Below are positions 3,162 to 47,226 of a stretch of DNA of 64,000 bases, piece after piece. The stretch spans positions 248,001 to 312,000 of the forward strand of contig JAGFMI010000005.1 in NCBI GenBank assembly GCA_021030905.1, read 5' to 3'. This DNA is from Pyrenula massariospora (taxonomy: Eukaryota > Ascomycota > Eurotiomycetes > Pyrenulales > Pyrenulaceae). Positions within the stretch are counted from its first letter, which is position 1; each line of letters begins with the position of its first letter. A program made the position numbers and the translations under genes. The notes below the pieces were generated by a model. The model was not told the origin of the DNA, searched no databases, and saw only the letters and a program-made list of their open reading frames with translations.

Positions 3162-5531
3162 ATGAGCACCACGGGTCCAGCAGCTTTAGATCAGCTCTGT
3201 CAAGGCTGTCAAGAGTTCCGCGCTCCTATTCAAAACCAGACATTGATAGATAACCCGTACAACCAATACCTCCGGAATCTTGCCGATGTACTAAAATCGG
3301 CGGCAGATGGTTGTCATCTCTGCAGATTCGTGACCAGGAGTCGTGCAGAATGGCACGATGAGAACCTTTGGGCCAGAAAGGACCCGAAATCTGCTGACTT
3401 GCTATACTTCGTGGCCACCAATACGATTACTGTATCACTTCAAGATGCTGGTGAACCTGGGAGCGGAGGATTTGGGGTACTACTGGGGGAATTTTACGAG
3501 GCAAGAGGTTCGTACGCTATCTAAAATCGTTAATTAACGGCTAAGAATAACTTTTAATAAAGTCGATAAGGGGCTAAGAGCTCAGCTTAGTCTTGAGACA
3601 AAGACTTGGTCAAGTGCTAGCATCAATGTTGTCAGACATTGGATTTCTCAGTGCGCTGAATCTCATGGTTATTGTAAAGCAGATGAGCCAATTTCCCGGA
3701 CATTGCCAACTCGCTTGATTGATGTAGGAACTGAGCAAGATGCCAATGCTCGGCTTGTTGAGACGGAAAAGCTTCCAATAGATACTCTCTACACTACCCT
3801 AAGTCATTGTTGGGGTCAAAATGTTCGGAACAGAGTGCGGCTTTTGAGAAGCGTTGTAGAGAACTTCAAGAGTGGTATCCCTGTGAGTCGCTTGCCTCGT
3901 ACTTTTGCAGACGCAATCACAGTCACAAGGCAGCTCGGTATCTTCTATTTGTGGATTGACAGCCTGTGCATTATCCAAGATTCAGAGGACAACATAGACT
4001 GGCAGAAAGAAGCGGCTCAGATGCGGGATTATTATTCAAATTCGTTCATTACCCTTGCCGCCACAGCAGCTCGAGATGATGAAGGCGGGCTTATTTTCGA
4101 CAGAGATCCTCTAGCAATTATTCCCTGCGAACTTCGCCTTCATGGATGTGGCAATTCCGAAAGAGTCGTGAGTGTCTGTGACGGAGCTACTTGGCATTAC
4201 CAGGTCAATAAAGCCCCATTATCGCAAAGAGGTTGGACGCTACAGGAAATCATGCTTTCGCCGCGTGTCTTGCATTTTACGCAGAATCAAATGTTTTGGG
4301 AATGCCGTTCCAAACCGATGATGGAATGGGATGACGGTACCTTTGACACCAGTGTCTACAGAAGAGAGATGCTACGTAACATCTTATGGCGAAGACAGAC
4401 AAGTCATAATCAGGAACATGACATTTGCTCAGGTGACAACAATAAAAGTGTTCCGTGGCTTTCTGATTGGCTCTCTATTGTCGAAAATTTTCAGTCAAGA
4501 TTGCTCACATACGAAAGTGATAGACTTTTCGCCTTGTCCGGAATAGCCCGCCGCCTGCATGAAACGGCTGGCCTTCCGCCAGGCTCCTACCTCGCCGGAA
4601 TGTGGAAGCCTCTACTCCCACTTCAGCTTTTATGGGAGGGCGGCTCTGGATATAAAAAACAGGGGAGCGGAACCATTGAGACGAAAGACTATCTCGCACC
4701 GTCATGGTCATGGGTTTCAAAAAAGGGTAGAATTCACCCGTTGGATCCCTTATCCTGGCAGTATGAGCAGGTAGATATTGTGGCTGACATACTGGATGCT
4801 TGGACGAAAGCACCAGTTGACCCTTTTGGAGGTGTCGTAAGCTTCCATTTTCTTTCTGCGTTGTCCGACACCTGTGGCATTGTGTCGCCCATAATATTGA
4901 TTACGCTCCACCAATCCACAACAGCTTCAATCTAATTTTACCTTTTGAGCAGATTGATGGAAGGATAGTTGTGCGAGGAAATTTATGCTCATTGGAAAAC
5001 GGAGCTGAAAGTCCAGGATCGTACGCAGAAACAGATGTTACGAATCAAAATCTGAAAACGGACGACAAGCGACAAGCATCGCGAAGAGAGCCGTTCTGCC
5101 AGAAAGACAGATCTATTTTGCTTCATTACGATAATGCCCCATCGAAGTTGGTTTGTGGCACCGTAGCCGCAGATATCGACCTGCACTGGGACTCCCCTCC
5201 TCCCAATCTAGAAATCGACGGTGTCATGAATACTACGATCCTTTTAGCGATTACCGAGCCAAGCAATCGCTTGAAACAGGAACGCCGTAAAGGATTAGAC
5301 ATGGGAAGAGATCAAGAAATGAGAGATCACTCGTTTGCTCGCCATTTCCGCGGACTCATCCTACAGCCAACTGGCGAACAGCCCGGACAGTATAGACGTA
5401 TCGGAATGTATCAATTACGAGATCTGCATGGCCAGGAAGGCCTGGAGCAGGCCGTCTGGACAAGCCCCTTGGAAAACCATTTCTACAAGGACTTTGACGG
5501 GGTGGACAAGTACACCATCGAGATCATTTGA
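3162..5531 (+). CDS. HET-domain heterokaryon-incompatibility protein
   Basis: Three exons (3162..3511, 3591..4836, 4953..5531) join in phase to 724 aa; introns are 79 and 116 nt with GTACGC and GTAAGC donors. HET proteins trigger non-self recognition and cell death on fusion of unlike hyphae, or act in fungal innate immunity (family knowledge). Seen here: an N-terminal Cys-pair region (CQGCQEF, CHLC), the pre-HET phrase LPTRLIDVG, then the three HET signature blocks TTLSHCWG, YLWIDSLCIIQD and MRDYYSNSFITLAATAARD, followed by RGWTLQE and LSPRVLHFT. The C-terminal part (PSWSWVSKKG onwards) is the usual variable tail without WD or NACHT repeats. No break is seen, so the gene looks intact. Which allele class or partner it recognises cannot be read from sequence. 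Confidence 0.88.
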
Positions 5532-11934: not shown

Positions 11935-12898
11935 GTATTCTGAAACGAGGAGCGGATAAGCAATGGTGGGAGGTATGTATGATGCGTGGGCGGAGCGAGG
12001 GGGCAGTTGTCAGTAAGGCGCAGCTGGATCATCCAGCTTGCGCATAGTCCTGGCTGGTAGAATGAACCCTCAGGTCGACACCAGAACAGCCCCAGCTATC
12101 GTCCACCAGCTCTCGAAGGAGAAGGAGCAAGAGATCTCGATAATTGGATGCGGCTGTGTGGGATTGATGATGATGCAGCACTTGGAGCTCTCCCAACTCG
12201 TATCGATAAGTGGCATGAATGACGGAGATGGGAGCATCGCCAGCGCAAATGAGGGGTGATGCAGCCGCGAGCTTGTGGTGTGTGTGGGTGGGCCAAAGCC
12301 GAGCTGAAGCCTGAAGCTCCGGGCGCCGCTCAGAGCTTGTTCGCTTAGGACTCTGCTTGAGGCTAGCCTGGCCACTCTCGCTCAACTGCTATCCAACCGC
12401 GCCCCAGATTCATCCATCCGCCATCTGGTATTCGCTCAGCAATTTTCAGGTACTGGGCCAATCATGCGCTAGGCAGCCTTGGACCGTTGTGTCTGTCCAG
12501 CATCCTATAGGTCAAACTGCTGTCGCCGTCGCCGGTCGTCAGTTAACCAGACCTGTCTGCATTGAGCCGCGAAACACAGAAACGCTGTCGGGGTCTGTGA
12601 GCTCGAATATCGCCGATGTCTGATAGCTTGTAGCCGAGGTGACGCTTCTAGCATGATACGAGTCAGACGTTTCGGCTCATTGCCGAGATAGCCTGATGGT
12701 TGGATTATGCACGCTATGTGACTGCTGCACCTCCATCAGGTCCGCAGCCTCTCTTGTTGATCTCGACCTCGAGATGCTCATTTGCTCATTCGGGATGCAT
12801 AACAATGGTGTTATATCTATCTTCTATGCAGCAATCAAAGGGTGCTCCGACGGCGAAGGAAACTTTATGTCGCAAGCCCGGTAAAGGTCATATGACCC
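11935..12898. other. Intergenic, no gene seen
   Basis: Overlapping short frames occur on both strands (12029-12385) with no motif. The region would contain the promoter of the five-exon gene at 11934 and the 3' flank of the MFS permease. Confidence 0.5.
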
Positions 12899-14686
12899 TT
12901 ACCAAACGTATCTGAAATGCAAATTCTCCGAGTCTGTGAGGTCCTTGAAGTCTGTCTCACGCTTCATGGGTCTACCGTCTTTCTTTCCAGATTCTAAAGG
13001 ACATATTCGATCTCGCCTCGCATTTTCATACCCGCACCAGGCCATATAGAGAGACAGGAATATGACGCTGCCGACGTAGCTCCCCAGGATCGCGCCCATG
13101 CCAAGTGCATACCGAGGCGCCTGCTCTTCTTTGAAGAACTGGGGGGCAATAATGTTTGACGTGCAATCTGTTGATTGTTCTAGTGTTAGCGAACATACCT
13201 CGACGATGACGTCAAATTAAGCCGCAGGCATGAACCAACTCACAGGCGATGAAAATGATTGCGTTGACAGTGACCTTTTTGGTATGGCCCGCCGTGTTTG
13301 CCGTAACCAAGCCCAAGCTTAAAATGTAGGGACCAAGGTAGAAATAGGACATGTAGAGAGCCGCCAATCTCCCATGGTAGTTGTCAAGCGGAAGAGTGTA
13401 CAGAAACACTGAACTGGTCATCCCTACTAGGAGGCCAAACAAGCACCACGTCCCTCTGAGCTGAAGCCGGGGATAACGAAGAAGGCAAAAGTAGACACCA
13501 AAACTGCAAACGTAGCTAGATACCGTCTGAACAATTCCCACGGGCATTGTCAAAAGGACAGAACGCTGAGACGAATAGCCGAGACCCTTAATGATCAAAG
13601 GTGCAAAATTCGTCAGGCCACCATTGGGAATCGACACGCAGATGTTGAATCCGAAAAGAAGCCACGTCTTTGGATCAGCGAAAGCCTCGAGAAGCTGGCG
13701 GCGCTTGAAGGTCTTATTCTCGACACCCGTCTGGTCCTCACGCAGGCGCTCGGCGGCTATGGACTTCTCTCTGTTGCCAATGAACTTGGCTCTGACAGGG
13801 TTATCCGGAAGTAGAATTCCAACGATAAAAGCCCACAGGATGGTTAGGGCTGCGGTAATCCAGAACATGCCTCGCCAAGCGTTGTGTTTGTTGGAAATAA
13901 ATCCAATGCCCCAACCGACCGGTCCAGTGATGAGCACCGAAAGACCTTTAGCTAGCGTATCAGTATCATTTCGAGAGCTGTACGCTAGCTCCGAACTTAC
14001 CGGTGTACATCAATCCCGTCCTCACAGGTTGTTCTTTTCGAGTATACCACATAGCGATGATTAGAAGATTACCCGGCACGATGGGACTTTCTAGAGCACC
14101 CAGCAGTACGCGCAGAACAACAAGAGTGGTAAAGCTGTTGGCGAAGCCGGTAGCAATTAAAATTACACCCCAGACTATTTGTGCTGTAAACATGGTCTTG
14201 GCTATAGGTAACTTCTGTAGAATATGCGAGGCAGGTAGTGAAAAGAACAGATATCCGAACTTGAGGGTACGTCAGCTTCGCATTAAAAGCTCTTGACTTC
14301 ACGGGGAAATATTGAAGCTGCAAAACGCTTGTCGTAAATCAGCTGCAGGTGCAGAAAAGGGGACTTACATAAAAAGCACTGCCGGCCCAGGCATATCGAG
14401 TCCCTGTCAAATGACAATCTGCCTTCATGCCATAGAGAGCCGCTGTCGCAGTGCTCACTTTGTCGACTGCCGCAAGCGTGACATTGAACCATAGAATTGG
14501 CACCAATCGGACGTCGAGCTTCCATCTCAACCGATTTTCTTCAGCGTGAGAGAACGTATCCCCATCCAGTCGATCTGCCAGCAACGCAGCCACATCAACA
14601 TCTTCACTTAGAACCGATGGCGGTCGAGAGTCTTCCATTGCAGTGAACGAAGCAGGCTCTGCCTTGAAGGTCTGATATTCGAGCAT
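12899..14686 (-). CDS. MFS permease, DAL5/allantoate (anion:cation symporter) family
   Basis: Four exons (14686..14369, 14259..14001, 13945..13244, 13167..12899) join in phase to 515 aa, the usual length of this family. Twelve hydrophobic segments can be placed. Family marks are RLVPILWFNVTLAAVDKV in the first helix region, the loop phrase LRVLLGALESPIVPGNLLI, WYTRKEQPVRTGLMY, the late-helix IAYCTSNIIAPQFF and the ending DLTDSENLHFRYVW. DAL5-type carriers import organic anions such as allantoate, ureidosuccinate, vitamins or phthalate-like acids across the plasma membrane. The substrate here is unknown. It lies on the same strand as the A-T-MFS/reductase/aminotransferase genes, 1.2 kb beyond the reductase, so it could be an edge member of that group. 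Two acceptors are AAG, which lowers exact-boundary confidence. Confidence 0.85.
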
Positions 14687-15927
14687 GACGAATGACGTTC
14701 AAGGTATATATAAATGCCGAAACATAGGAAACATAGGAAAGAGAGGTCCCTTCCACGGCATTTTGGCACCACAGTACCGGATAAAATTGCTAATAAACAG
14801 CGCCATGATGAAACTTCGTGTTCGGGACACAGTGAGTCAGCGCCTCAGGGCAAGGAAAGATCGATCATTGTAGTGAGATACAAGCCTGAAAGTTTGATCT
14901 AGAAGAACCAACCACTGTCCACGATGTAGCGTGCTTGCACTCGGACCGTCTATTTTGCACTGATGGCAGACCGCAAGATTGTCGTGCATCACCAACATGA
15001 CGGCTACGGATCTAGCCGATATCTGTCGGTCTAAGGCCTTGCAAGGGTTTTCAATTTAGGACAATGGTGCGGCTCCTTCGAGGTGACCGCCTCAAGAAAA
15101 ACTTTAGTGTAGCGAATCGACGAAGGGAATATGATCCTTAAAGCGGCTTAGCGTGGCTTCGTGCTCCTCTTGCGCCTTTTTGATGCAGCAGCCGCCTATT
15201 TTCGAAGGACTGCACGCATGCTTGATGAATAATTTTCTGTCAGGTCTTCCCCAGTCGTCGTAGCAGGGGATTGTCAGCATCAACATTTCGCCAACTCGAC
15301 GGTACCGCGCGGGATGACGATTGGCGTTGTGGCGCCTTTCTCTGTCTCAGGATCACCACTGCTCACCAAGAAAACTATAGGTGCATTGGACCTTAGCGAG
15401 TGATAGGAAATCACCGACAAGGCGAGTCTCTGACCTCGGCTCATCACTACGATGTCGACTCGATATGTGTTCTCATCATACACCGACTACTTGTGCCGCA
15501 GAGAAGCATATATGGCGCATCTGACTAATCGTGCTAACTCTGCAGTTTGCCACCTACATCACTGGTCAAGGCTGCGGCTCAAGACCTTTAACGATAGTTT
15601 CAAAGCGATGATAACGATGTAACAAGGCCATCTTCTAGCACGATAGTCTTAGTGTCATGGTCAAGCCGCCGGCCGCAAGGCTTCTTTATTAAGTGCTATG
15701 GGATGCACACCTCGGCTAGAGGATTCCCTATCCTCACGTCGGTATACTAGTCAACAAGATGACGTTTCCTCATGTACACCATAGCTGACGAGTATCTAGT
15801 CAAAAATTGACTCGGTCGCATCCGCGAGAGACTGAAAGCCAATACTGGCACTAGCCCGTCACGCCGAGTGACGTTGCTTCGAACTATTACTGCACTATTC
15901 CTCAAATCTCTCAATGCTATCTACAAG
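14687..15927. other. Intergenic, no gene seen
   Basis: About 1.2 kb without a convincing open frame on either strand. It would hold the MFS permease promoter and the 3' end of the reductase gene. Confidence 0.5.
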
Positions 15928-17646
15928 CTACCGAACCTGCACCGTCCCTGCATCAGCACTGTACCCTACCGTAAATCTTTTCGTATTCCTAGACAGACTC
16001 CGATCGATCTCAAAGAGTGTCTTTCTCCCCCACGACGTCGCAATCTCTTGGGGTTCTGGCGTAGAGTTCTGACTTAGGCGCAACGACAAACGCCATTGTG
16101 TTTCTACCGGCTTGCGAGGAATACTAAGGTAGTCTTTTGGTGGCACAGGAGGTGGTCTGTCATCATCGTGAACATCGCTCGCTACTGAGTCAGTGGTGAC
16201 CGTGATCCTCGGCTTCGAAGTTAGCCTTGCTGTGGGTGGTCGTATGATTGGTGTCTGCGAAGCTCCCCCGTATCCCCATTGGCGCATCCACAGATTCATC
16301 CAACGTGAGTTGATCATGTCGAGGTCGGCGAGAGTAGGGCTCCGTCTTGTTGTACGCTTTGTCTCAAGTGTGACTGCCTTTGCTTTCGGAAACCTTACTG
16401 CTCTCTCTTTAAGCTCTTCGAAAAAGGAGATCAGTTTTCCGGCTGGGTTGCCGTCAGGATCGAATGTGTCGCTATCCGCACTTCTCTTCAACGCGTTCAC
16501 CCACTCTGGCAATGTGACAACTTCAACGTCAGCTCCCAACCTTTCCCGGATACTAGGTAATAGCTGTGACCATGGAGTTGGCTGCGGGTTGACCACATGG
16601 TAAACCTCCGGTCCTTTCTTTTTCTTTTCCTGATCTTCCCTTTTCCCGAACAGCAACTCTATCATAATCTTCCCCAGCATATCGACTGGTACCCAATCCG
16701 CCGCATCCAGCGGCCCCAAACTCCCTGGAATTTTCTTCAAGTGACCGGAACTCCTGATCAGACTCGGCAACCACTCCTTTCGATTCCACTGCCCCCTTCC
16801 CTTATTGCCCACTGGGCCGGCGACCTGCCCGACTCGACAAACCATCCCCCTCATCAATCCCTTCTTGCACCCCTCCTTGATGATCTTCTCCGCTACCAAC
16901 TTGCTCTGCCCATACGCCAATCTTGCAACCCTCCAATCTCCTACTGCCTCTTCGGGCACTTTTTCTCTTGAACCAAGTACCGCTCCCCAGTTTCCCACCG
17001 CCGCAACCGAACTGACAAAGAAAAGCGTCGTCTCCCCACCCCGGCACTGCCCCGCAAACTTCACCAGATTCCCTGCACCCCTCACATTCGGCTCAAACGC
17101 CGCCAAGCTCCGATTATTATCGAGCGGCCACGCGTTATGCACGACGTGCGTCACCTCCGCCCTCAGCCTCTCATAGTCTCCCTCCCCGAGCCCCAACCGG
17201 CCCTGCGAAACATCGGCGGTGAGGAACTCGATCCTCGCGGGATGCAGCAGCTCGATGCCCAAGCCGCGGCATTTGAACGCGTTCTTCTGCCGCTGTTCGG
17301 CGGTCGCGGAGCGGTTCAGGCAGATCACGCGGGACACGGTCGGCGTGGAGAGGAGGGAGTAGAGGAGGAAGGTGCCGATGTTGCCCGTCGAGCCGGTGAG
17401 GAGGATGACGTGCGGGTTCGAGATTGGGTGCGAGGGGAGTTGGAGCGGGCGGAGGCGGCGGGACGTCGGTGTTTGTGGAAGGCGGGCGCGGGAATTGGAG
17501 GCGATGGGGGAGACGGGTGAGGTACTGAGGGGACGTTTCGTCGTCGTTGGTGTGATGGGGGAGACGGCTTCAATGGGGGGAGAGGGAGCGTGTTTCGGGG
17601 CGGTTGGGAAGAGAGAGAGTATGTTGGTGATGGAGGTTGGGGACAT
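15928..17646 (-). CDS. Stand-alone thioester-reductase-like NAD(P)-binding protein
   Basis: A single exon of 572 aa from the ATG at 17646. The frame is open further upstream but only from non-ATG codons. Residues 1-80 are Pro/Ser/Thr-rich. The Rossmann motif GSTGNIG lies at ~85-91, VSSVAAVGNWG supplies the catalytic serine region at ~212, and the short-chain reductase pair YGQSK sits at ~245-249. HVVHNAWPLDNNRSL and EPNVRGAGNLVKF identify the male-sterility/NAD_binding_4 type. This fold forms the R domain of fungal A-T-R enzymes, where it releases a carrier-bound acyl group as aldehyde or alcohol with NADPH. Here it stands alone. The last ~110 residues are a Pro-rich tail (RPPPVPPKDY) not needed by the fold. 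It runs in the same direction as the A-T-MFS gene 1.6 kb upstream, which suggests it acts on that carrier domain; this is inference. Confidence 0.85.
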   Translation of the reverse strand: MSPTSITNILSLFPTAPKHAPSPPIEAVSPITPTTTKRPLSTSPVSPIASNSRARLPQTPTSRRLRPLQLPSHPISNPHVILLTGSTGNIGTFLLYSLLSTPTVSRVICLNRSATAEQRQKNAFKCRGLGIELLHPARIEFLTADVSQGRLGLGEGDYERLRAEVTHVVHNAWPLDNNRSLAAFEPNVRGAGNLVKFAGQCRGGETTLFFVSSVAAVGNWGAVLGSREKVPEEAVGDWRVARLAYGQSKLVAEKIIKEGCKKGLMRGMVCRVGQVAGPVGNKGRGQWNRKEWLPSLIRSSGHLKKIPGSLGPLDAADWVPVDMLGKIMIELLFGKREDQEKKKKGPEVYHVVNPQPTPWSQLLPSIRERLGADVEVVTLPEWVNALKRSADSDTFDPDGNPAGKLISFFEELKERAVRFPKAKAVTLETKRTTRRSPTLADLDMINSRWMNLWMRQWGYGGASQTPIIRPPTARLTSKPRITVTTDSVASDVHDDDRPPPVPPKDYLSIPRKPVETQWRLSLRLSQNSTPEPQEIATSWGRKTLFEIDRSLSRNTKRFTVGYSADAGTVQVR

Positions 17647-19292: not shown

Positions 19293-22200
19293 TCAAATAG
19301 CATCGACGTCTTCTCCACTCTTCTCAAACAGATCCCTCGCTTTTCTTCCTCTCCACGCTTCTCTCGCAGTCCAGGCGTATAATACCGTCGCACCAGCAAG
19401 CATGGCACCTGTCGAGACCTGTGCTCCCAGCCAGTCTTCTCTGTTCTTGCTTGCAGCGAAAGCGATAGGCGATCCGATCAAAAATCCCAGACCACTTGCA
19501 AAATGCATCATTCCCATTCTGGTGCCATAGATAGCCAGGTTAGAACAAATATATGGCAAAGCAGCGTAGGCAAAGGTCAAGGCTATGCCAACAAAGAGTC
19601 CATAGATCAGCAGCCAGGGGATGAGACCGCCAAGGAAACGAATGGCGGGCCAGGTAAACGCTATTGTTGCGCAAACTGCATAGGCGGCAAAGGTGATTAG
19701 TTCGCTTGGTGGGCGAGACTTCCGGAAGGATTTTGCGAGGTCCAGAAAAAGGGCAGAGGACACGCGTCCGATGACTTGAGCAGCGTTGAGGGTGGAGAGA
19801 AGGTCGGAAGAAAGGTTTCGAGAGATTATAAGGTGTTCAGAAGCAAACAGCGGTGTGGTAAAGTAAGGCACAAAAAGGCCGGCAAAAAGGAGGAATATAG
19901 AAGCCAGAAAGGCCAGGAACGAAGACTCGTGGAGGGCGGGAACGTCGATGAGCTGTCTAGATGGACAAAGACTTGTTGGACGGATGATGAGGATGGACGA
20001 ACCAAGTGTCAAGAGAGAAATGACGGCAATGATGCGAATCGTCTCTGCGAAAGAGGTAACAAGAATGAGGTTGCGAAAGAGGATAGTGTAAATAACGCCG
20101 CCGAAGGGGCCGCCAGCAGATGCGAGACTTAGTGAAAGCTCAAGGCGTTTGGAAAAATAACGAGGTAACACCAGTGAAGGAATATTGAATAGAAAGCCCG
20201 AGGAAACGCCAAGCAGGATGCCTTGCGCGAGAAAGACCTGATAATACGATTTTGAGAGAGAAACCATCATTAGGGCAAAGAAGAATGTGAGAGTTGCAAT
20301 GACATGGATAATCCGGAAGTAGCCTTTGTCGAAAAGTGGTCCAGCAACAACTCCGACCATCAGAAACAGCGCGCCTTGAATGGTACCGATCCAGGAAATC
20401 AAAAAAGCGGAATTTGATGGGAAGAGACGGTCTCGATAAAACATTTCAAAGACACCAAACGTATAAATCAAGCCCCAGGTGTTAAAATCTATCAGAAATG
20501 AGCCGAGAATTTGAAGCCAAGCTTGTGTACCTCTATCTTGTGGGATGGCGAATATTTCCTCGGGCGGGAAGAGAAGATCCTTTGCTCTTCGGCGTTGTAG
20601 CTCTTCATGTGGCAAAACTTGACAGACCGTGTCCTCGAACATCTTTTGCATCAAGCGAATGTGTCCATCGCCATTCACACTACTTTGCTCTTCGTTGAAC
20701 GTGGTGCCCTTGTGCCCAGTACCACGGTGTAGAAATGTTGCAAGACTTTCAATAGTTGGGTTGTCGTATACAGCTCTTGGATTCAAAAGGCTCTGGACTC
20801 TGCCGGCGTTTATAGTCCGCACGAGATCGATCACCTGTAAAGAATCTATACCCGCCTTGAAGATGTCGTCTTGAATCCCAAGATCATGGAGGTGGAAGTC
20901 ATTCTCCAGAATCGCATGTAGGGACGCCTGTGTCCGCTCGAACGATTCCATATTGAATGGTGTGAACGCAAACTTGCTTGAAAATAGCTCCTCTTGCTGG
21001 TAGATCTCCTCGATCTCCTCAGCAAAGTATCTATTATTGGGATCTCGCTGTATGGTGCCTTGGCCCGCCCTGATAAGGACTTTATCCGGTGATGTAAATA
21101 GTATATGGTCTCGCCTTATTTTGCCACGGTGGGAACAAGATTTATTGGCGTGCTCAATGTATGGCCATATTTCCTCCATCAACCGTGCTGATTTTTCAGC
21201 GGGATCCTTGGGTTCAACCAGCAAAGCGCTCTGAAATCTTCCTTGCCCGATCACCAAGCAGGCAGTGACCACTGGACAGGATGTGATGATGCTCTCCATG
21301 GTGACAGGATTCAGCTTCTCGCCATTGTTGAAGACAATGATGTCGTCCAATCTTGAGTTGTACATCCACAAATTTGGCTTTGTAGGGTGTTTGGTAAAAA
21401 GCTCCTTGGTACGATATTCTTGAAGATGTGGGAAGGTAACAAATACGGCTTGCATCAGGTCTAGTTTCCGATCTTTGACAAGGACCATTTCATAAAGACC
21501 TTCGCCCGTGTCCCGGAACTCGATGCCGCTGGATGTTTCGTTGAATCTAAAGTATTCCCAGTCCTCAGCCGTCTTTGGCAATTGTGGGACCGACAGATAC
21601 TCTGTCGCCCCAAGGGCCGGTTCAAGCTTGGTATACCTTGAAACGATCTCGGCGGTGGCCCTCGGTAAAGGTCCGCCTACGTAGAGTAGATTCCTAAGTC
21701 TCCCAAGGGCCTCTAGTTGGCTTTCATTTTGGGTCATATCCATGATGATAGTAGGGGGAAGACTACTGCACTCGACGTGACCAAAGACATGACAGCCATG
21801 CGCCACACGAGCAGACAATGGGACCGGAGGAGGCAATACCACGGTAGAGTTGACCCAAACAGGAGCAGAGACTGAATAAACTAAGCCAGCCACGTGAGAT
21901 GGGGGAAAGGGGATAAAGGTTCGCATGTTCCCCCATCGATGTGCCACTTCATTGATCACTAGACGAGAGTAGGCGTCAATAATGGTCGGGTAACCATGTT
22001 TCAGAGGGATGATCTTGGGATTGCCAGTCGAGACTGAGGTGTGCATAAGCACCCAAGGTTTCATTCGGTACTCATCAAATGACTTTTCAAAAGGAATCTC
22101 AGCAACCGGTGTTTCATCAAGGAGGTCCTCGAGCTCCGGAATAATGATCAAGTCCATTTGACGTTGGTCTAAGATCTCATAGACAATTGGAAGTGGTTGC

Positions 22201-22632
22201 GATGTCGAAATGAAGACATTTGCATCAGCTTCGGCTAAAAGCGACAAGAAAGCCTCCAACTTATTACTTGGAGACGGGACGAACGTCTACAGCTGCATGA
22301 GAAGAAGCGTTCAAAAGATTTTTGAAAGAGCAACATACGACATGACCGGTTTTGGCTGCTGCCATGCACAATATCTGGTACCGGAGATCATTCGGCCCCA
22401 AATATGTCAACGTTTCGAAACAGTGCGAGACTCCGACGGATTCTGCAATCCAGTGTGCACATCGATTGATCGCATTTGCAAATCTCCGGTATGAAATGTC
22501 TCGAAACCCGTCCGCGGCGTCCTTGGAAACAGGAATTGACGCAAACGGTCGCGCATAGTTCATACGCGCGCGCTCATCAATGGTGGTTAAGAGTAGACGC
22601 CTCCCATAATCTGGCGCCTGACTCTGGGCCAT
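19293..22632 (-). CDS. NRPS-like adenylation-carrier protein fused to MFS transporter
   Basis: Exons 22632..22339 and 22286..19293, 52-nt intron (GTATGT/TAG), 1095 aa. Residues 1-~520 are an AMP-binding domain of the fungal A-T-R type (IPVSKDAADGFRDISYR, SRLDDIIVFNNGEKLNP, ALGATEY). Residues ~540-620 are a carrier domain with FKAGIDSLQ, Ser580 being the phosphopantetheine site. From ~682 a full MFS transporter follows (DRGTQAWLQILGSFLIDFNT opening, 12 hydrophobic segments), of the monocarboxylate-porter type. The joining codons are one uninterrupted exon, so the fusion does not depend on a splice guess. Odd points: the A3 loop reads HTSVSTGNPK, with Val for the usual Gly, and the A10 motif reads GQGTIQR with Gln507 where family members have the catalytic Lys. 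Expected role: activate and carry a carboxylic acid, and move it or its product across a membrane. That coupling is inference. Confidence 0.88.
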
Positions 22633-23204: not shown

Positions 23205-24617
23205 TCATTCGAGTGTAAGTTCTGATGCTTGCCTTGGGGTCTCCAGCGCGCTAGAATTTCCGGCAGCTGAGTCAGTGCCGTGTCGAAGATCTGCGAGCAA
23301 CTGGGCAAGTCTCCTTACGCCTTCTCCAATCTCGTCTGCGTTATGCCATGCCCAGGACAATCGTGCACCGTGTCCAAAGGTACTTTCTGCTCTCTGATCG
23401 CTACTGGGGTCCCCGGTAACGGTCATCATTTGACCGTAAGCAATTTTCAGTCGATACTCTTCCAGCGCCCGCCGTGCAATCTTATCGGCGGATGGTAAAC
23501 CTGGTGGGAAACTGATATATGTGAAAAACCCACCTGCTTCGGGAATACGTTCACTGGAGCTGGTCAGTGCATATGGCTTTCCAGTCGTAACCTTTACCCC
23601 GAGGGGTACAAGATGCTTCTGGATAGCGTTCATCATTGTGAAATAGCGACTTTGATAAGTCGGAATCAGCACATTCTTGATGTGATCGTTCAAGACCCCA
23701 GTAGAGAGTAATTCATCCACGAACACTGAAGATAAGTGGCTTGGAGCACCTCCGGATTTGGTAGAACCAACTTTTGACATTTCATCTGCGAAACCTTCTG
23801 TTCCTTCTACCCAGCTTACCCTAACGCCGGGTGCAATGATCTTTGAAAAAGAACCGTTGCTGACGGCATTCCCGTATTGACTCGTTCCAGGCGACTGGCG
23901 ATCCACATCAACCATGCGCGGAGGAGGGAGTCCAAGCTGCTGCCTTTGAGGCTGTGGGCTATTGGCTGGCCATCGTAGCATGTCATATACGTCGTCCGCA
24001 ACCACAAGTGCGTCAAACTCTCGGGCAATACGAATCAGCTCTTGGCGCCTCCGAAAAGACATCGTTTTCGCGGATGGATTAGAAAATGTCGGGACCACGT
24101 AGATGACATTTTTGTACAGTTTCGGATATCTTGGCCCTGTCTTGAGTGCCTTTCCCCGATGTTCAAGATACTCTGCCTTAATGAGTTGTCTCCTAAGCCA
24201 TTCAATGTCAATCCCCTCTTCGTCCTCCGGTACGCCGCGCAATTTCCCGACAAATCCGGCATCTTCGAAGATAGGGCACGCCAGGAAGTATGTCGGCTCA
24301 ATCATCCAGATGCATCTGGTATATACTGGATCCGTGAATTTGGCAAGGATGTTCGCGAGGTTCCCAGAGGCGCCATTAGAGATGCAGATGCGGTCGGCGG
24401 AGACTCGTCCGGCAACTGGTTTGTAAAACTCTGTCAACCATCGAGCAACGTTCTTCCTCAGGGGTGGGTACCCAGGATCTGGACCATAAATCAAAGCATC
24501 AGCTGAAATCTGTTTGTCGGATAGTGTGGCACAGGTCGCCTCCAGGAGCCCGAGCCGAGGAAACAGATATGTGGATGGCCAGCCCAGCTGAAGATTCAAA
24601 GGCGTTTTGAATTGCAT
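23205..24617 (-). CDS. PLP-dependent aminotransferase, fold type I (2-aminoadipate/aromatic type)
   Basis: A single exon of 470 aa. The start MQFKTPLNLQLGWPSTYL puts the family phrase NLQLGWPS at residues 8-15, so little upstream sequence can be missing. Seen: YGPDPGYPPLR (~44-54), NGASGNLANI (cofactor phosphate region, ~81-90), VVPTFSNPSAKT (~174-185), VVADDVYDML with the PLP-contacting Asp and Tyr (~205-214), and SFSKIIAPGVRVSW with the Schiff-base lysine K259. The family, related to KAT/aminoadipate aminotransferases and the YdcR/ARO8 group, transfers an amino group between an amino acid and a 2-oxo acid. Fungal members occur in both primary and secondary metabolism. It lies 570 bp upstream of the A-T-MFS gene on the same strand, so it may supply an amino or oxo acid for activation. 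Confidence 0.88.
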   Translation of the reverse strand: MQFKTPLNLQLGWPSTYLFPRLGLLEATCATLSDKQISADALIYGPDPGYPPLRKNVARWLTEFYKPVAGRVSADRICISNGASGNLANILAKFTDPVYTRCIWMIEPTYFLACPIFEDAGFVGKLRGVPEDEEGIDIEWLRRQLIKAEYLEHRGKALKTGPRYPKLYKNVIYVVPTFSNPSAKTMSFRRRQELIRIAREFDALVVADDVYDMLRWPANSPQPQRQQLGLPPPRMVDVDRQSPGTSQYGNAVSNGSFSKIIAPGVRVSWVEGTEGFADEMSKVGSTKSGGAPSHLSSVFVDELLSTGVLNDHIKNVLIPTYQSRYFTMMNAIQKHLVPLGVKVTTGKPYALTSSSERIPEAGGFFTYISFPPGLPSADKIARRALEEYRLKIAYGQMMTVTGDPSSDQRAESTFGHGARLSWAWHNADEIGEGVRRLAQLLADLRHGTDSAAGNSSALETPRQASELTLE

Positions 24618-25385
24618 CTTGCTTGAGTAAGGAGGAAGAACAAATTGATCCCCCTCAAGCCGAATCTGTACCGTGAAAATCCAATAGCTTCGTCAGGCGG
24701 GGAAGTACGGCTGCTATGCCCCGGTCTGCTCCATTTGCTCAACAGCCCAAACCTCTTCCAACACAACAGAAATAGCCTAGTGCATGACAAGCAGTCTCAC
24801 TTTGGCAATTGTTGAAGTCAGAACATCGCGGTGCTAAAAGGAGAGGCCGGAAATTATTGTTTGAGGCGCACGATGGCGTCGATCAAAATGAAAAAACACG
24901 ACACGCCGCTGCCCGCCCCGCCCCAAGTCGGCCCAATGGAGAACGACGATGGACGCCACTCCGCGAGGGCGCCAGGGGGAGGTGCGGCCAGGGGAGGTCG
25001 AAGCGGATCTCCCCCCGCCAAAGACTTCCCTCCCCAACTGAAAAGCCCCGATGCCCATCACTATTTCGACCACCCCCCCTAGCGCCTTTAACCATTTCTG
25101 CTTCCAATGACCCTCGTGTTTCGCCTCCGCTGGCCGTGACTGGGCCTTTCTTATCGTGGGCCACCGATCTCTGAAGCACTTTCGGTATGCCCTGTGAACC
25201 TGGAAACGGCCCCTCCCCGAGTTCATACATCATCAGGCCGCACACGATCACTTCCCACTTCCTCTCTGGAATCCGGCTAGGCTGATAATCCTAACATCAA
25301 CAGATCCATCCGCACTCTCACTTCTCACGGTGTCGAGAATGCTTACGAGGAGCCGTATGCAACCCTGTTCTCAGTTGGAGAGAAA
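24618..25385. other. Divergent intergenic region, no gene seen
   Basis: This 770-bp interval separates the minus-strand aminotransferase from the plus-strand metallo-beta-lactamase-like gene and would hold both promoters. Frames at 24809-25251 overlap on both strands, are rich in Pro/Arg/Gly from C-rich DNA, and carry no motif. Confidence 0.5.
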
Positions 25386-40003: not shown

Positions 40004-43000
40004 ATGGTCAAAAGGGAGCAAGGAACCCGAAATGGTAGCGAGAGCTCCGGGGCAGAGACGGTGAGGGGCGGATTTGGTGGATCATTTCGTAACCCAAATA
40101 TGAAGGTCAAGACTGGGAAACGAGAAAGGTGAGCAGAGTCTCATACACCCAAAGCCTTCACCACCGAGAAACTCGATGCGCTGTACTCGCCATATCGTGC
40201 ATTGTTCGCGTAGTGGAAGCCTCGAGTTCAAAACACCTAGATGGAGTGCGTAAAGAACCTACAGGACGCTGAAATTTCGTTTATATGCGTGACTCAGTGC
40301 ACAAGACTGTGCGAGACAGAGGCAACGACTCGAAACTGGGTTGCTCTTCGCATGTCTCGACAAATGGCTCCTATGCCGACCGATTCTCTTGAACGCACTT
40401 GCAAGAGCTAGTGTCTAATGTGTCTTAGACTTTGAGAAGAGGATCAAGGACTAATTCGCTGCTGTATAGGTCGGACAAAGAATCTCACTCGAATTTCCCG
40501 TCGAATGACCATGATCTTTTCTCCAAGTCCATGTTCCTTTCTTCCTCCCCAGAAGTCTCGCCAACTGATCAGAAGAATGCTGGCTTCAACAATCACCGGA
40601 AGGCGTTGGCCGTGCTGGGTGCTGACTCGAAATCGCAAGCCCCTGCTCGTAATCCCCCCTCTTCAGTTCAGACCAAGAGTCAGATAGCCCCGTGGGGAGA
40701 GCCACCATCTCGTCCTAGTATGCCTTCTCAGTCTTTCGGACATAGTTTTTACAACGAATCGTCGGAGAATATTGGTCAATTGTCGCCGTCTTTCAGGCCG
40801 GGCACGAGTAGGACAGGCACAAGCGAGTCGGCGTATGATGAGGACGCAAGAAGACCGTCGGTAGCTAGCAACAACACGGTTAGCAGTCAAGGTTCGAAAG
40901 CGAGTGCGGCTGGTCGGATACACAAGAACTTGAAAGGGTTCTTTGGCAACGAGTACGATGGAAATGATTTGAAGGTAGCTTCCGATCCAAGTGTCAACAC
41001 TCAAGGCTCCCAGCCAATGTCGAGGGAGAGCTCAAAGCAACGAAATCGGACGGACTCGATTAACACCAATCATACGGCCGATAGTAGCCTTCGACCCCCT
41101 TCGCCTAGTGGCAGGCCACACACACCGCTTCCGAGTAGCGACGTGACCCCTTGGATGTATCAGAATTTCAATGTGAGTTGTTCCAAATTCCTTCAATCCT
41201 GGGATATCTTCGGCTGGGCTTACCGTCGAACTTGTGTGGGACTGTTGCTTCCCTTTCAGAAATGCTTTTTATCAAGAAAACTTGAGAGCATTCCATAAGC
41301 CGTAGGGAAGCGGTAAACGAGGTTAAGGAGACTGTCTAAATGCAGCACAACTTTAGACAAGCTACCCGCGATGCATGCTCTCTTATGCCCTTCTTGATGG
41401 AAAGTGATTTGATAGAGTACCTTGATTTGTAATTTGAGTGAAGAAAGGAGATTGTGTCTTGTGGGAGATGAAGCGCGGAGTTATGTGTGACGTGCTGATG
41501 AATACATTATAGGATGTTTCTCAGTTCGGAGACGCCCCCGTACGAACAGCGCCTACAAGCGCGGACAGCAGTCGCTACAATACAGTTGCACCTTCTACGA
41601 ATCAAAAAGACCACAACCACATCATCATCACCGTGTTCTTCCTCATCTTCATCGGCATACACGAAGCAAAGAAGAAACCTCGAAGACCAAAGACCTGACC
41701 CCGACCTCATACCCCGCTAGGCCGACCACCAGTCGTGAGCATTCTCAAAATAATCAATCCTTTAGCAATGAAAATCCCTTTCCACCCCCTATGTCCTCCC
41801 AAGCAGCCAATCAGCGGCCAAGGGGGACTAGCCCAACTCCCAGCGGCCACAGCAACCATGAGAGAGACGGCAACCCAGACGGTCGCTCTGGCGGTAAACG
41901 CTTTCTCGATAAATTGCGGAGGCACAAAGGCCCACTGACCGACCTGAAGGGCCTCCCTGGGTCCAAAGCATCGCTCTCTGACAGCGGAAAGAGAGTCCCT
42001 CCCCCAGAACCATCTCCACGAAAGACTGGACGCGAAGCAAGCATTGCGACCTTCGATAGCGCATCGACCTTGAAACCATCAGATACCTTTAACCTCGAAA
42101 AATCAAGTACCCTCGCGTCAAAAGTCCCTGGGAAGTTTGGTCGACATCATAATAGGCGAAATCCTAGCTACGAGAGCAACACTACCGATAGAACCCGTCA
42201 AGGCTCGAATGCACAGGATGGCATGTTCAACCTGGACATGGACCTGGAAAACATGGAAGGCATTATCAGCAAGCCGACGGAACCAATGTCACCTCTCGAC
42301 GCGCCCTTTACAGGGATACCCGGGATGGACGAGACAAAGAGGAATCCGAGCCAAGATTCAGGCGCCGCTGGATCTTGGGATGCTCCAGACAGCTGGGCCG
42401 TGAAAAAAGCTGGTGACGACATAGTCGCAAGGTTGCCCGAAATTAGTGAGGACGGGCTGCCACAAAAAGAGGAGGATGATGGCACTCCGTATTGCATGCG
42501 AGTCTTTAGGGTTGATTCCACTTTCGCTACAGTCTCCTCCAGTATCAACTCTACCGTTGCCGATATTCTACAATTGCTGGCGAAGAAGTCGGTCCTGCAA
42601 GATGCTATCGAGAACTATCAGCTTGTGCTCAAAAAACACGATTTACAACGAGCATTGGATCTCGGCGAACGCCCCATAGCTATGCAAAAGAAGCTGCTAG
42701 AACAGATTGGCTACACGAACGTTGACAAGATTGATGAAGTCGGTCGGGAAGACAACAGCTATCTCTGTCGCTTCACATTCACTCAGACAAAGATGACGGG
42801 ATTTTACAGTCTTGAAAAGGATCCCGGCTTCAACAAGATGGCCAAATTTAGTCACGTTGACCTTCAGGGTCGCAGCCTGGTTACAATTCCCATCACATTA
42901 TACCAGAAAGCCTCAGAGATCATTTCACTCAACCTATCTCGCAACCTAGCCCTCGACGTTCCCAGGGACTTCATTCAAGCCTGCATAAACCTACGAGAAC

Positions 43001-46000
43001 TCAAATTCACGGGTTGCGAAGCGTGGCGATTACCTGCAAGCCTGAGTTGGGCAAGCAGATTAACTGTCATCGATATTTCCAATAACAGGCTTGAACAGCT
43101 AGAACATGCTGGGCTCGACAGATTGTCTGGCTTGGTGAGCATCAAGATGGCAAACAACAAACTATCACACCTCCCACCCTACTTTGGCAACTTCAAATTC
43201 CTCAGAAACCTAAACATGTCGTCAAATAACTTCAAGAACTTCCCCGATTTTCTGTGCGACCTCAAATCCTTGGTTGACCTTGATATAAGTTTCAATCAAA
43301 TCACAGAGCTGCCCAAAATCGACAAGCTTACCAATTTGGAAAGATTGTGGATGACCAACAACAATCTGACGGGTCCATTCCCAGAGAGCTTCAAGAAGCT
43401 CGTGAATCTCAAGGAAGTTGATGCCCGATTCAATGGGATTACGAATATTGAAAAGATCGCACTTCTACCTCGTCTTGAATTGTTACTCTTGGGTCATAAC
43501 AAGGTCGCAACTTTCAGCGGCTCGTTTGCCAAAGTTCGAATCCTCATCCTTGATCATTGCCCTATTACTCAGTTTGACCTTGACGCTCCTGTCCCTACTT
43601 TGACAACCTTGAACATCGCATCAGCAAAACTGGCCTTCATGAAAGACATCACATTCGACAATATGCCTAATTTGACCAAGCTGGTCCTCGACAAGAACCA
43701 TTTCACGAATCTGTCGACCCATCTGGGAAGATTAACGAAACTTGAGTATCTCAGTATAGCGAAGAATCCGTTGAACACTCTGCCAGCAACGCTCGGCAGC
43801 TTGAGCGAGCTGAGACATCTCAATTTGCGAGAATGTAATCTCAAAGCTCTGCCGCCGGAAACTTGGTATTGTGCAAAGTTGGAGTCGCTTAATTTATCCG
43901 TAAATGTTCTAGAGAGCTTTCCAAAGCCAGGTGCTGCTCCCCCACCCTCTGCAGCTGCAGCTCAGACTAATGGAGCTCCAACACCCACGTCGGCGACAAA
44001 TTCGTCTCCTAATTTCGAAGAATTAGGAAAGCTTGAGGATTTCGGCCAGAGAAGGCCTAGCAATGTCTCAGCAGGTTTATTAAGTGTTGGAAGCTCTCCA
44101 GTTGGGTCCCAAAGAAAAGGTTCAGTCGTCTCTTTGTATGGGTCAGGCGGCCGAAAGACGTCAGTGGTATCCAGGACTGGCACAGATGGGTCTTTAACGC
44201 CCGTTACACGGAAAGATTCAAACATCTCGGCAACACGCTTCAGTCAAACCTTTGCCGGGTCCCTCAAGCACCTCTATCTCGCAGATAATCGGCTAGATGA
44301 CGACGTTTATCGTGAACTTGTCATGCTCCCGGAGCTTCGTGTCCTTAATCTTTCTTATAATGAGCTCACTGACTTTCCCCAAGGCCTGCTACGGCGATGG
44401 ACGCAATTGACGGAGCTCTATATATCCGGAAACGAGCTGTCGTCACTGCCATCTGACGACCTAGAAGAGACGAGCAATTTGAGAGTGCTCCATATTAATG
44501 CGAACAAATTTCAAAATCTTCCGGCAGAACTATGCAAAGTCCATCGACTTGCTATTCTCGATGTTGGAAGCAATTCACTCAAGTACAACGTATCGAATTG
44601 GCCGTACGACTGGAACTGGAACTGGAATAAAAATCTCAAGTATCTCAACTTTTCCGGAAACAAGAGGCTAGAGATCAAGCCAAGTGCTTCGTACAACAGT
44701 GCACTAGCTGGCCAGAGTAAATCAGCCGATCTGACAAATTTCAATGGCTTAAACTTTCTGCGCATTTTGGGTTTAATGGACGTCACCCTGACTATCATGT
44801 CTAGTCTTGACCAGCATGAGGATAAGCGTGTAAGGACGTCTGCCTCACAAGCAGGGTCCATATTGTACGGCATGGCTGATTCATTAGGGAAACACGAGCA
44901 CCTATCTATGCTTGACATGTTTGTGCCAAATTTCCGTGGGGACAATAACGAGATATTAATTGGCCTTTTCGATGGGCAAGCCATGTCGTCCTCTGGGTCC
45001 AAGATCTCAAAATACTTGCAGGAAAATTTTCGCGTGACGTTTTCAGAAGAACTTCAAAGAGTACAGAGAGAAAATGATGAAGCTGAGAGGCTGGGTTCTG
45101 ATTTCAGGCTGTCCCCGGTCGATGCAATAAGACGAGCCTTCCTCGCCCTCAATAAGGATATTGCTAGTACTGCAAATCAAGCCATCGAATTGGGCGGTCG
45201 CCGTGACCAAGGCATGCCTCACCGAATCGGAAGTGTCGGTCAAGTTTTTACATCTGACGACTTGACCTCTGGTGCCACTGCAACAGTCATGTATGTTCAT
45301 CGTACGGACCTCTACGTCGCTAACGTTGGAGACGCGGAGGCAATGCTCATTCAGAACAACGCACAACACAGCTTCCTTACCCGGAAACATGACCCTGCCG
45401 ATCCTCAAGAGAGGGAACGGATCCGTGAAGCAGGTGGGTATGTTTCCCGTCATGGAAGGCTCAATGACATGTTGGAGGTCTCGCGTGCCTTCGGGTACTT
45501 CCCTATGATGCCCTGTGTTACTGCTAATCCAGACACCATGCATATATCCCTTACCGACAATGACGAGATGATTCTTCTTGCCTCCAGGGAATTCTGGGAT
45601 TATGTTACGCCGGACCTTGCGATCGATGTTGCTCGACAGGAAAAGAGTGACCTCATGATTGCTGCTCAGAAATGCCGTGATCTTGCGATTGCCTTTGGTG
45701 CCACCAACAAGATCATGGTTCAAATAATTGGGGTTAGTGACGTACGAAAACGTGGAAGTAGCCGCTTCCGAGGCACCAGCTTATCTCTCACTCCCTCCCA
45801 TGGTCAAGATGATACCATATTTCCGTCAAAGCGCGGTAGGCGAGCTCGTGACGGTCCAAGCGACTCGCGTCTTGCCCGTCTCGAAGAACCAGAAGCTCCC
45901 GTCGGCGAGGTTGCTATTGTTTTCACCGACATCAAGTCGTCGACAGCGATGTGGGAAATATTGCCTGTAGCAATGCGCTCGGCTATTCAGATGCACAACG

Positions 46001-47226
46001 ACTTGATGCGGCGGCAGCTGCGCCTCATTGGTGGCTTCGAAGTCAAGACTGAAGGCGACGCTTTCATGGTCTCGTTCCCGACCGTCACTTCAGCGCTACT
46101 TTGGTGCTTCTCTTGCCAATCGCACCTTCTCGAGCTCTCTTGGCCTTCCGAAATCCTCGACACCGTCCATTGCCAAGAAAGATTTGACTCGGATGGCAAC
46201 ACCATATATCGCGGCTTGAGTGTCCGCATGGGCATTCATTGGGGCGAACCTGTGTGCGAAAAAGATCCAATTACCCGACGGATGGACTACTTTGGCCCTA
46301 TGGTCAACCGCGCCAGCCGCATCAGCGCAGTCGCAGATGGCGGTCAGATAACTGTCTCAAGCGACTTCATTGAGGAGATTAGAAGGACGCTTGAGAACCA
46401 CGCTGATGATGGGCGCTCCGGTTCGACAGGGAGCGAAGAAACCATGCACGATGATGCTCTTAGCAACCAGATTCGTAAAGAGCTCAAGCAGCTCTCGTCT
46501 CAAGGGTTTGAGGTCAAGGATCTCGGCGAGAAGAAACTGAAGGGCCTTGAGAACCCGGAGTTCGTGTATCTCATGTACCCTGCCTCGTTGGCCGGACGAC
46601 TTGCCTTCATGGACCAGTCACCACCCGATGCTGACTCGGGTAGTGGGCAAGGGGCCTCAAATGAGCCAGGGCAGCTAAGCAAAAACTCAAAGCTGAGCAT
46701 TGACCCAGATTCGGTATGGGGCTTGTGGGATATCGCGTTGAGATTGGAAATGCTCTGCAGTGCTTTCGAGCAGGACCGGGAAGGGGTTAAGAGCCTCAAT
46801 CGCCCAGAGTTGAGTCTGCTCAGCAGGATGAAGAATCAAGGCGGGGAGATTACGGATGAATTCTTCATGAATTTGTTGGAGCATCAGGTTGTTAGGGTTG
46901 AGGTATGCTTTCCACACGTTTCTTTTTTCTACGTTGGATTTCACTGACCCACTTTTCACCCCCAAAAGAACTGCATAACAACCTTGCAAATCCGATCTCT
47001 TGTGTCACCCTTCAAGAAAGGTGATACTCTCGCCGAACACGCACAGCCCATCGGTGATGTCTTTGCCTCTGTCATGGCCGATATGGACGAATTTCTCAAG
47101 TGGAAGAGAACGGCTGGAGAAAGGGAGGCGAGGGAGAGACAGTACAGGGCTATGGAGCAGCATTTAGCGAGCCTAGAGGATGAGGAAGATGAGGATTACG
47201 ATGGTGAGGATGCACTGGGTGATTGA
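40004..47226 (+). CDS. Adenylate cyclase (Ras-associating, LRR, PP2C-like)
   Basis: Makes cAMP downstream of Ras and G-alpha at the plasma membrane. The likely first coding block starts at the ATG at 40004; a donor lies at 40129 (or 40062). Further exons: ~40437..41172, 41513 to the long exon ending 46902, and 46969..47226. In order: a Ser/Pro-rich N terminus; a Ras-association-like region (42475-42790); about 20 leucine-rich repeats (42830-44760) broken by a Ser-rich insert near 43930-44230; a PP2C-like domain (44860-45745, LIGLFDGQAM, GATATVMYVHR, VANVGDAEAML); the class III cyclase domain (45900-46580, IVFTDIKSSTAMWE, GGFEVKTEGDAFMVSF, DYFGPMVNRASRISA); and a C-terminal cap with an acidic end. 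The metal-binding FTDIKSS aspartate is present. The frame of exon 41513 breaks near 41606-41640 and continues one base out of register, so either a base is missing or splicing there is unusual. The 5' structure is provisional. Confidence 0.9.

What the first reader, a model, noticed from the sequence alone, without database searches (positions are those of the whole stretch)
19293..22632. Adenylation-carrier enzyme fused in frame to a complete MFS transporter
One uninterrupted exon runs from an AMP-binding domain through a carrier domain with its phosphopantetheine serine into a full 12-helix monocarboxylate-type transporter that keeps its own normal N-terminal phrase. Fungal A-T proteins normally end in a reductase or thioesterase. 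I know of no characterised A-T-MFS protein. It could activate a substrate and hand it to, or gate, a linked transporter.
Basis: partly seen in the sequence, partly recalled or inferred. Interest (0 to 1): 0.88.

Follow-up and report, generated by a model that had tools for sequence, protein, structure and literature searches.

The report
Enzyme half fused to membrane transporter
In this fungal DNA a single gene appears to join an acid-activating enzyme unit to a membrane transporter, and the reductase that usually completes such enzymes sits in a separate gene just downstream, so acid activation and transport may be coupled in one protein; no experiment has tested this.

Summary
A minus-strand gene at 22632-19293 (two exons, one 52-nt intron) encodes 1095 aa: AMP-binding + AMP-binding_C_3 (A), PP-binding (T) with its Ser580, a 62-aa linker, and a full-length MFS_1/monocarboxylate-type transporter, in one frame. 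Codon bias stays coding across the seam.

(1) A thioester reductase of the kind that follows A-T in fungal carboxylate reductases is present as a separate gene 1.6 kb downstream on the same strand (ATG 17646 to 15928; match to solved reductase domain 8aep, E 3e-71). The locus reads aminotransferase / A-T-MFS / R / second MFS. (2) The A domain departs from that family at A3 Gly, A7 Asp and the A10-region Lys, so its activity is uncertain. (3) Fungal A or A-T units fused to membrane domains are already known (NPS12, TmpB, Epls).

Best reading: a carboxylate reductase split in two, its A-T half anchored to a transporter and its R half acting in trans. No fungal genomes, reads or transcripts were available, so spread, transcription and assembly are unverified. 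Ten paper searches (open-licence papers, capped listings) showed no A-T-MFS protein.

The parts
22339..22632 (-). Exon 1 of the A-T-MFS gene (aa 1-98, start of the adenylation domain); ATG at 22632 with A at -3
   Evidence: the piece without exon 1 (and without the transporter) scores 57.5 instead of 84.3 bits for AMP-binding
22287..22338 (-). Intron of 52 nt, GTATGT...TGTAG, phase 0
   Evidence: the other acceptor tried leaves an in-frame stop; unspliced, the exon 1 frame ends at a stop at 22264
19293..22286 (-). Exon 2: 997 codons plus stop, rest of A, T, linker and MFS in one open frame
20988..22286 (-). Adenylation domain, part in exon 2 (AMP-binding and AMP-binding_C_3), with A3 TSVSTGNPK, A7 YRTKE and A10-region GQGTIQR departures
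20730..20888 (-). Carrier (T, PP-binding) domain; phosphopantetheine serine Ser580 = codon 20843-20841 in GIDSL
20544..20729 (-). Linker of 62 codons between carrier and transporter; coding-like, no Pfam or PDB match
19296..20543 (-). MFS_1 / monocarboxylate-transporter-like domain (aa 680-1095), full profile length
15928..17646 (-). Stand-alone thioester reductase (R) gene, 572 aa from its first Met; TGSTGNIG, YGQSK and VSS present; no A or T family match
23205..24692 (-). Class I/II PLP aminotransferase (limits are those of the open frame; neighbour, link inferred from position and strand only)
12890..14690 (-). Second MFS transporter gene, several exons, exon limits not resolved (neighbour, link inferred from position and strand only)

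Best explanation
A fungal A-T-R carboxylate reductase (NRPS-like, adenylate-forming reductase) exists here as two genes. The first, A-T-MFS, has an MCT-type transporter joined after the carrier where the reductase would normally be. The second, 1.6 kb downstream on the same strand, is the reductase alone. Proposed working: the A domain activates an acid with ATP and loads it on the phosphopantetheine of Ser580; the separate R enzyme reduces the thioester to an aldehyde or alcohol with NADPH; and the transporter to which the carrier is anchored moves the product, or supplies the acid, across the membrane. Shown here: gene layout, domains, frame, carrier serine, R motifs. Inferred: that this A-T is of the carboxylate-reductase type, that the two genes work together, membrane placement, direction of transport, substrate. 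In doubt: whether the A domain is catalytically active.
For: A, T and MFS families each above curated cut-offs in one frame. In-frame codon score is positive in each 60-codon window across the seam and negative in the two other frames, where stops count as -6 each; the linker alone scores like coding DNA. The downstream same-strand gene matches an isolated reductase domain nearly end to end (8aep, residues 24-403 of 403, 243.7 bits) and TIGR01746 thioester reductase (144 bits, below that model's curated cut-off of 213), with no A or T match. R has TGxxGxxG, YxxxK and the Ser region that PMC5826065 reports as essential or important. The A domain keeps His229, Glu327, Arg410 and Glu421, and T keeps Ser580, which I equate with NcCAR His237, Glu337, Arg422, Glu433 and Ser595 (PMC5826065 sections 13, 20). 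Thr509 fits the hydroxyl residue that PMC5826065 section 28 gives for fungal CARs at the A10 position.
Against: The A domain lacks the A3 Gly (Val183; NcCAR G184A was found only in the insoluble fraction), the A7 Asp (Glu393; NcCAR D405A was much weaker) and the Lys suggested to stand in for the A10 Lys in fungal CARs (Gln507 for NcCAR Lys522) (PMC5826065). The strict published patterns G(S)TExG(T), L(F)S(A)xGEK(F) and, in R, GYxxxKxxxE(S) also do not match letter for letter (ATEYL, FNNGEK, AYGQSKLVAE). The nearest solved relatives of the A domain are acyl-CoA ligases, with weak scores, and no carboxylate reductase appears among the hits, so its assignment to the carboxylate-reductase type is inference. 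Common ancestry of this A-T and this R could not be tested: no fungal genomes are searchable here. R has its own Met, 66 residues before the matched domain that are Pro/Ser-rich, and about 1.65 kb of DNA between it and the A-T-MFS stop. No expression, structure (one search failed) or assay.
Confidence: 0.4

Rival explanations
1. A pseudo-enzyme gate or sensor: the A domain has lost full catalysis and binds ATP or an acid only, regulating or localising the attached transporter; the R gene is a separate enzyme.
For: Three positions conserved in active relatives are replaced (Val183, Glu393, Gln507; against PMC5826065; the A3 and A7 replacements are also visible in alignments to solved ligases), while the frame stays open for 1095 codons.
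Against: Carrier serine, PxxH His, TE Glu and GEK Glu are kept. In PMC5826065 several other A3 residues could be replaced without much effect, Asp405 was not essential, and fungal CARs already lack the canonical A10 Lys.
Confidence: 0.22
2. Plain covalent tethering: the A-T part keeps its own chemistry and the MFS its own transport, and the fusion only fixes their ratio and position at a membrane, as in other proteins that join A units to membrane domains.
For: Precedents from papers: NPS12 is an A domain plus a ferric-reductase-type transmembrane domain (PMC2823734 section 21); TmpB, an oxidoreductase with an NRPS-type A domain, is at the plasma membrane and its loss reduces conidiation (PMC4804170 abstract); Pls and Epls join A-T to transmembrane segments (PMC7179176 passages); an ABC transporter tethers an enzyme of cereulide synthesis to the membrane (PMC7527721 abstract).
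Against: Does not explain why a reductase of the expected kind lies next door.
Confidence: 0.2
3. Two products from one locus: the transporter is also or only made from an internal start (Met647), or the seam is spliced, so that A-T and MFS are separate proteins.
For: Met644 and Met647 lie in the linker, Met647 with A at -3, and a weak donor-like GTGTGA lies at 20680 in the linker, one of only two such sites that the pattern found in exon 2.
Against: No stop in the frame; linker codon bias is coding; a separate A-T protein would need a splice into another frame.
Confidence: 0.1
4. Assembly artefact: two unrelated genes joined at the seam by misassembly.
For: A random join would be on the right strand and in frame about one time in six (own estimate), so frame alone is weak proof. 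Reads were not available.
Against: The linker itself is coding-like in frame (35 of 25,930 presumed noncoding windows do as well); repeats found around the gene are short, 28 nt or less; third-position GC of both halves is similar (0.524 and 0.490).
Confidence: 0.08

Closest known systems
Fungal A-T-R carboxylate reductases / adenylate-forming reductases (NcCAR, AtCAR, PnlA)
   Same: A-T order; an R of matching kind lies next door with TGxxGxxG and YxxxK
   Different: R is a separate gene and an MFS stands in its place; A domain altered at A3, A7 and the A10 region
NPS12 (A domain plus ferric-reductase-type transmembrane domain) and TmpB (oxidoreductase with NRPS-type A domain)
   Same: NRPS-type A domain in one fungal protein with a membrane part (PMC2823734 section 21; PMC4804170 abstract)
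   Different: [quoted passage not shown] the other part is a redox enzyme, not an MFS transporter
epsilon-Poly-L-lysine synthetase (bacterial Pls, fungal Epls)
   Same: A-T fused to transmembrane segments in one protein (PMC7179176 passages)
   Different: Six transmembrane segments and three tandem C domains; no MFS part described
Cereulide NRPS tethered by its ABC transporter
   Same: Transporter and nonribosomal synthetase work physically coupled (PMC7527721 abstract)
   Different: Two partners, bacterial, ABC not MFS
Monocarboxylate transporter family (MCT1, MCT2, MCT8, MCT10 in solved structures)
   Same: Best solved relatives of the C-terminal part
   Different: Those chains are transporters of about 480-570 residues; the matches are weak (best E 1e-5)

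Membership tests
Fungal A-T-R carboxylate reductase (adenylate-forming reductase) | A domain with AMP-binding and its C-terminal subdomain | tested here: met
   AMP-binding 84.3 bits, AMP-binding_C_3 111.1 bits, both above cut-off; that AMP-binding_C_3 is usual in this family is recalled
Fungal A-T-R carboxylate reductase (adenylate-forming reductase) | Carrier domain with phosphopantetheine serine | tested here: met
   PP-binding 27.7 bits (cut-off 20.8); Ser580 in GIDSL
Fungal A-T-R carboxylate reductase (adenylate-forming reductase) | R domain in the same polypeptide | tested here: not met
   No NAD_binding_4 among the four families of the 1095-aa protein; R is a separate gene at 17646-15928
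Fungal A-T-R carboxylate reductase (adenylate-forming reductase) | Residues whose loss abolishes NcCAR activity: His237, Glu433, Ser595, Tyr844, Lys848 | tested here: met
   Matched by His229, Glu421, Ser580 in A-T-MFS and by Tyr and Lys of YGQSK in the R gene, by motif only (list from PMC5826065 abstract)
Fungal A-T-R carboxylate reductase (adenylate-forming reductase) | Published conserved patterns: A3, Asp405-Arg422 pair, Lys522 | tested here: not met
   Val183 for Gly, Glu393 for Asp (Arg410 kept, spacing 17), Gln507 for Lys (PMC5826065)
Fungal A-T-R carboxylate reductase (adenylate-forming reductase) | A domain groups with carboxylate reductases in a tree | not testable with these tools
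   No fungal sequences to compare; nearest solved A-domain relatives are acyl-CoA ligases, weakly
MFS, monocarboxylate-transporter type | Full-length MFS_1 profile | tested here: met
   Profile 4-346 of 347, 41.1 bits, cut-off 33.4
MFS, monocarboxylate-transporter type | Closest to MCT among solved and named families | tested here: met
   12 of 12 PDB hits at E up to 0.01 are MCTs; NF049980 and TIGR00892 match, both far below their cut-offs
MFS, monocarboxylate-transporter type | Twelve helices and transport activity | tested here: inconclusive
   Hydropathy does not resolve 12; fold prediction failed; activity needs an experiment
NPS12 | Ferric-reductase-type transmembrane domain after A | tested here: not met
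   No such family match; MFS_1 instead
epsilon-Poly-lysine synthetase | Tandem C domains with the membrane part | tested here: not met
   No further family match in the protein

The most novel reading that the evidence does not exclude
A split carboxylate reductase in which the carrier-bound intermediate is made on a transporter: the A-T half is covalently part of an MFS, the reductase acts in trans, and the reactive aldehyde is released directly at the transporter, so synthesis and export form one unit. If so, MFS transporters would join the list of C-terminal modules of NRPS-like enzymes.
Probability: 0.3. Interest if true: 0.78.

Novelty: new variant of a known kind. Interest (0 to 1): 0.52.

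Why it matters
Fungal NRPS-like proteins are commonly described by what follows A-T: a reductase, a thioesterase, or in a few cases a membrane domain. An MFS in that position, with a reductase in the next gene, would show that such an assembly line can be broken up and put on a transporter, and would offer a natural test of whether a fused transporter receives the product of the enzyme it is attached to. It also gives a defined gene pair (A-T-MFS plus R) in which division of labour between two genes can be tested.

Tried and rejected
Own-genome search: no whole genome is held for this window, so paralogues and assembly could not be checked. Relatives: viral contigs, no match; genome contigs, 11 pattern matches, none a relative.

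Fold prediction of the 997-residue exon-2 protein without an alignment gave mean pLDDT 35.9 and pTM 0.26 and was discarded; no fold search was made and the second prediction job was not used.

Repeats around the gene that might mark an inserted MFS: 18 direct families and 20 inverted pairs, all 28 nt or shorter and nearly all imperfect. One 14-nt direct pair (20561 and 17601, 86%) and a few others do bracket parts of the transporter, but they are of the length and quality that the tool itself warns are often chance. Origin by insertion of an MFS into an A-T-R gene is therefore not shown; it is only suggested by the order A-T / MFS / R on one strand.

I considered splicing from the weak donor-like site at 20680 past the transporter into the R gene (which would give A-T-R) and rejected it as unlikely: about 3 kb, weak site, no evidence.

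The linker stretch RLMQKMFEDTVCQVLP reminds me of the T-to-R linker of fungal carboxylate reductases, but this is recalled; a PDB search with the 86-aa seam piece found nothing and Pfam nothing.

Paper searches: (10 of 10 allowed). Rows listed were 5 of 5, 3 of 3, 15 of 939, 15 of 41, 6 of 6, 1 of 1, 20 of 642, 10 of 59, 8 of 17 and 8 of 8 papers; for most of these I saw only title and start of abstract. Nine papers were opened. The term MFS does not occur in the held text of PMC2823734, PMC9605436, PMC4205913 or PMC4804170. PMC4835503 only lists domain counts in the passages shown. PMC4890743 passages and PMC4205913 passages show other architectures (A + ferric reductase; A-T-R; A-T-TE).

The second MFS was not assigned to a subfamily: PDB search of one piece gave one weak unrelated hit; the anion:cation-symporter type is my impression only.

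Full report
What was checked. Exon 1 (22632-22339) and exon 2 (22286-19293) are separated by a 52-nt intron with a GTATGT donor and a TAG acceptor in phase 0; the spliced protein has 1095 residues and no internal stop. So the A domain begins in a small first exon, and the long exon carries the rest of A, T, linker and MFS. Pfam finds AMP-binding, AMP-binding_C_3, PP-binding and MFS_1 in that order, all above curated cut-offs. Searched apart, the transporter part gives MFS_1 42.5 bits and the A-T piece of exon 2 gives AMP-binding_C_3 112.6, PP-binding 26.7 and AMP-binding 57.5, the last lower than the 84.3 of the whole protein because exon 1 is missing.

Is the seam real? Codon log-odds, trained on eight other long open frames of the window, are positive in the reading frame in all windows listed from aa 99 to aa 1029 (lowest 0.6, at aa 459; 3.0 at the seam window aa 639) and negative in both other frames, where stops count as -6 each. 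The 62-codon linker alone is stop-free with score 10.4; of 25,930 windows of the same length from presumed noncoding DNA of this window (both strands, all offsets, overlapping), 1,882 are stop-free and 35 also reach that score. First-order Markov shuffles of the linker do so in 0.285% of 20,000. In-frame joining by accident would still happen about one time in six (own estimate), so only reads or transcripts can exclude an assembly error; those were not available.

The surroundings. On the same strand, 1.65 kb downstream of the stop, lies a gene for a thioester reductase alone (ATG 17646 to 15928, 572 aa). It matches the isolated reductase domain 8aep over residues 24-403 of 403 (243.7 bits, E 3e-71); the entry calls the molecule an acetyl-CoA synthetase-like protein, and I recall, not from a call, that it is a fungal carboxylate reductase. 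The gene carries TGSTGNIG, VSS and YGQSK; the wider published pattern GYxxxKxxxE(S) fails on its first Gly, which is Ala. A reductase of this kind normally follows A-T in the same polypeptide in fungal carboxylate reductases (PMC9605436 abstract). Upstream on the same strand is a class I/II aminotransferase and downstream of R a second MFS gene. Of 100 open frames considered (7 plus 93 listed, after that script dropped nested frames from those of 90 aa or more), 37 were scanned with Pfam; no A or T domain was found among them outside the A-T-MFS protein, and the other 63 were not scanned.

The A domain. Measured against the residues studied in Neurospora crassa carboxylate reductase (PMC5826065: abstract, sections 13, 20 part 1 and 28 read), the protein keeps the PxxH histidine (His229), the TE glutamate (Glu327), the arginine of the ribose pair (Arg410), the GEK glutamate (Glu421) and the carrier serine (Ser580). 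It replaces the A3 glycine by valine (Val183), the A7 aspartate by glutamate (Glu393) and the lysine suggested to stand in for the A10 lysine by glutamine (Gln507), while Thr509 fits the hydroxyl residue typical of fungal enzymes. The strict patterns around TE and GEK also fail by a letter or two. Alignment to solved acyl-CoA ligases shows the A3 and A7 differences directly. Those ligases, weakly matched, are the nearest solved relatives of the A part, and no carboxylate reductase appears among the hits listed for it, so calling it carboxylate-reductase-type is inference from the AMP-binding_C_3 match, Thr509 and the neighbouring R. Whether the replaced residues kill, weaken or merely alter activity is not known; it is the main uncertainty about function.

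The transporter. The MFS_1 profile is covered from 4 to 346 of 347, and 12 of 12 solved relatives at E up to 0.01 are monocarboxylate transporters. Matches are weak. I count twelve hydrophobic stretches by eye, but the hydropathy script did not resolve them, and the structure prediction without an alignment was unusable.

How it most likely works. The simplest reading that uses all the parts is a carboxylate reductase in two pieces: A-T, anchored to a transporter, loads an acid; the separate R releases it as aldehyde or alcohol; the transporter moves product or substrate. The layout, domains and motifs are shown; cooperation of the genes, direction of transport and substrate are inferred. Rivals are a non-catalytic A-T acting as a gate or sensor, plain tethering, internal initiation or splicing at the seam, and assembly error.

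What is known. [quoted passage not shown]). TmpB of Aspergillus nidulans, an oxidoreductase homologue with an NRPS-type A domain, sits at the plasma membrane, and its inactivation decreases conidiation (PMC4804170, abstract and passages). Pls and fungal Epls join A-T to transmembrane segments (PMC7179176, passages). An ABC transporter tethers an enzyme of cereulide synthesis to the membrane (PMC7527721, abstract and outline). A virtual library of 84 fungal carboxylate reductases is described, these being A-T-R enzymes (PMC9605436, abstract and passages). None of these, as far as I read, is A-T-MFS. Ten searches of open-licence papers showed no A-T-MFS report in the 91 rows listed (repeats included; several listings were capped). 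Subscription papers, supplements and protein databases with fungal sequences were not searchable, so the architecture may be recorded there.

Verdict. The fusion is a new variant of a known kind: an NRPS-like A-T unit with an unusual membrane C-terminus. The neighbouring stand-alone reductase makes it more interesting, and the altered A domain makes it less certain.

Noticed in passing
window 17646-15928 (-): Stand-alone thioester reductase with a Pro/Ser-rich N-terminus of 66 residues and a C-terminal extension of 113 residues beyond the stretch matched to 8aep.
   Followed up: partly
window 23205-24692 (-): Aminotransferase directly upstream on the same strand; best solved relatives are named aminotransferase II homologue, PH0207 and multiple substrate aminotransferase.
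   Followed up: partly
window 12890-14690 (-): A second MFS transporter gene downstream of the reductase; my impression, not tested, is a different subfamily from the fused one.
   Followed up: partly
window 41491-46947 (+): Large frame with RA, leucine-rich repeats, PP2C and cyclase domains, an adenylate cyclase; with the HET domain at 3538-4935 it suggests to me a filamentous ascomycete, but the species was not identified.
   Followed up: no
window 54519-59651: Run of metabolic genes: glyoxalase-type, iron-containing alcohol dehydrogenase and a phosphoglycerate-dehydrogenase-like gene.
   Followed up: no
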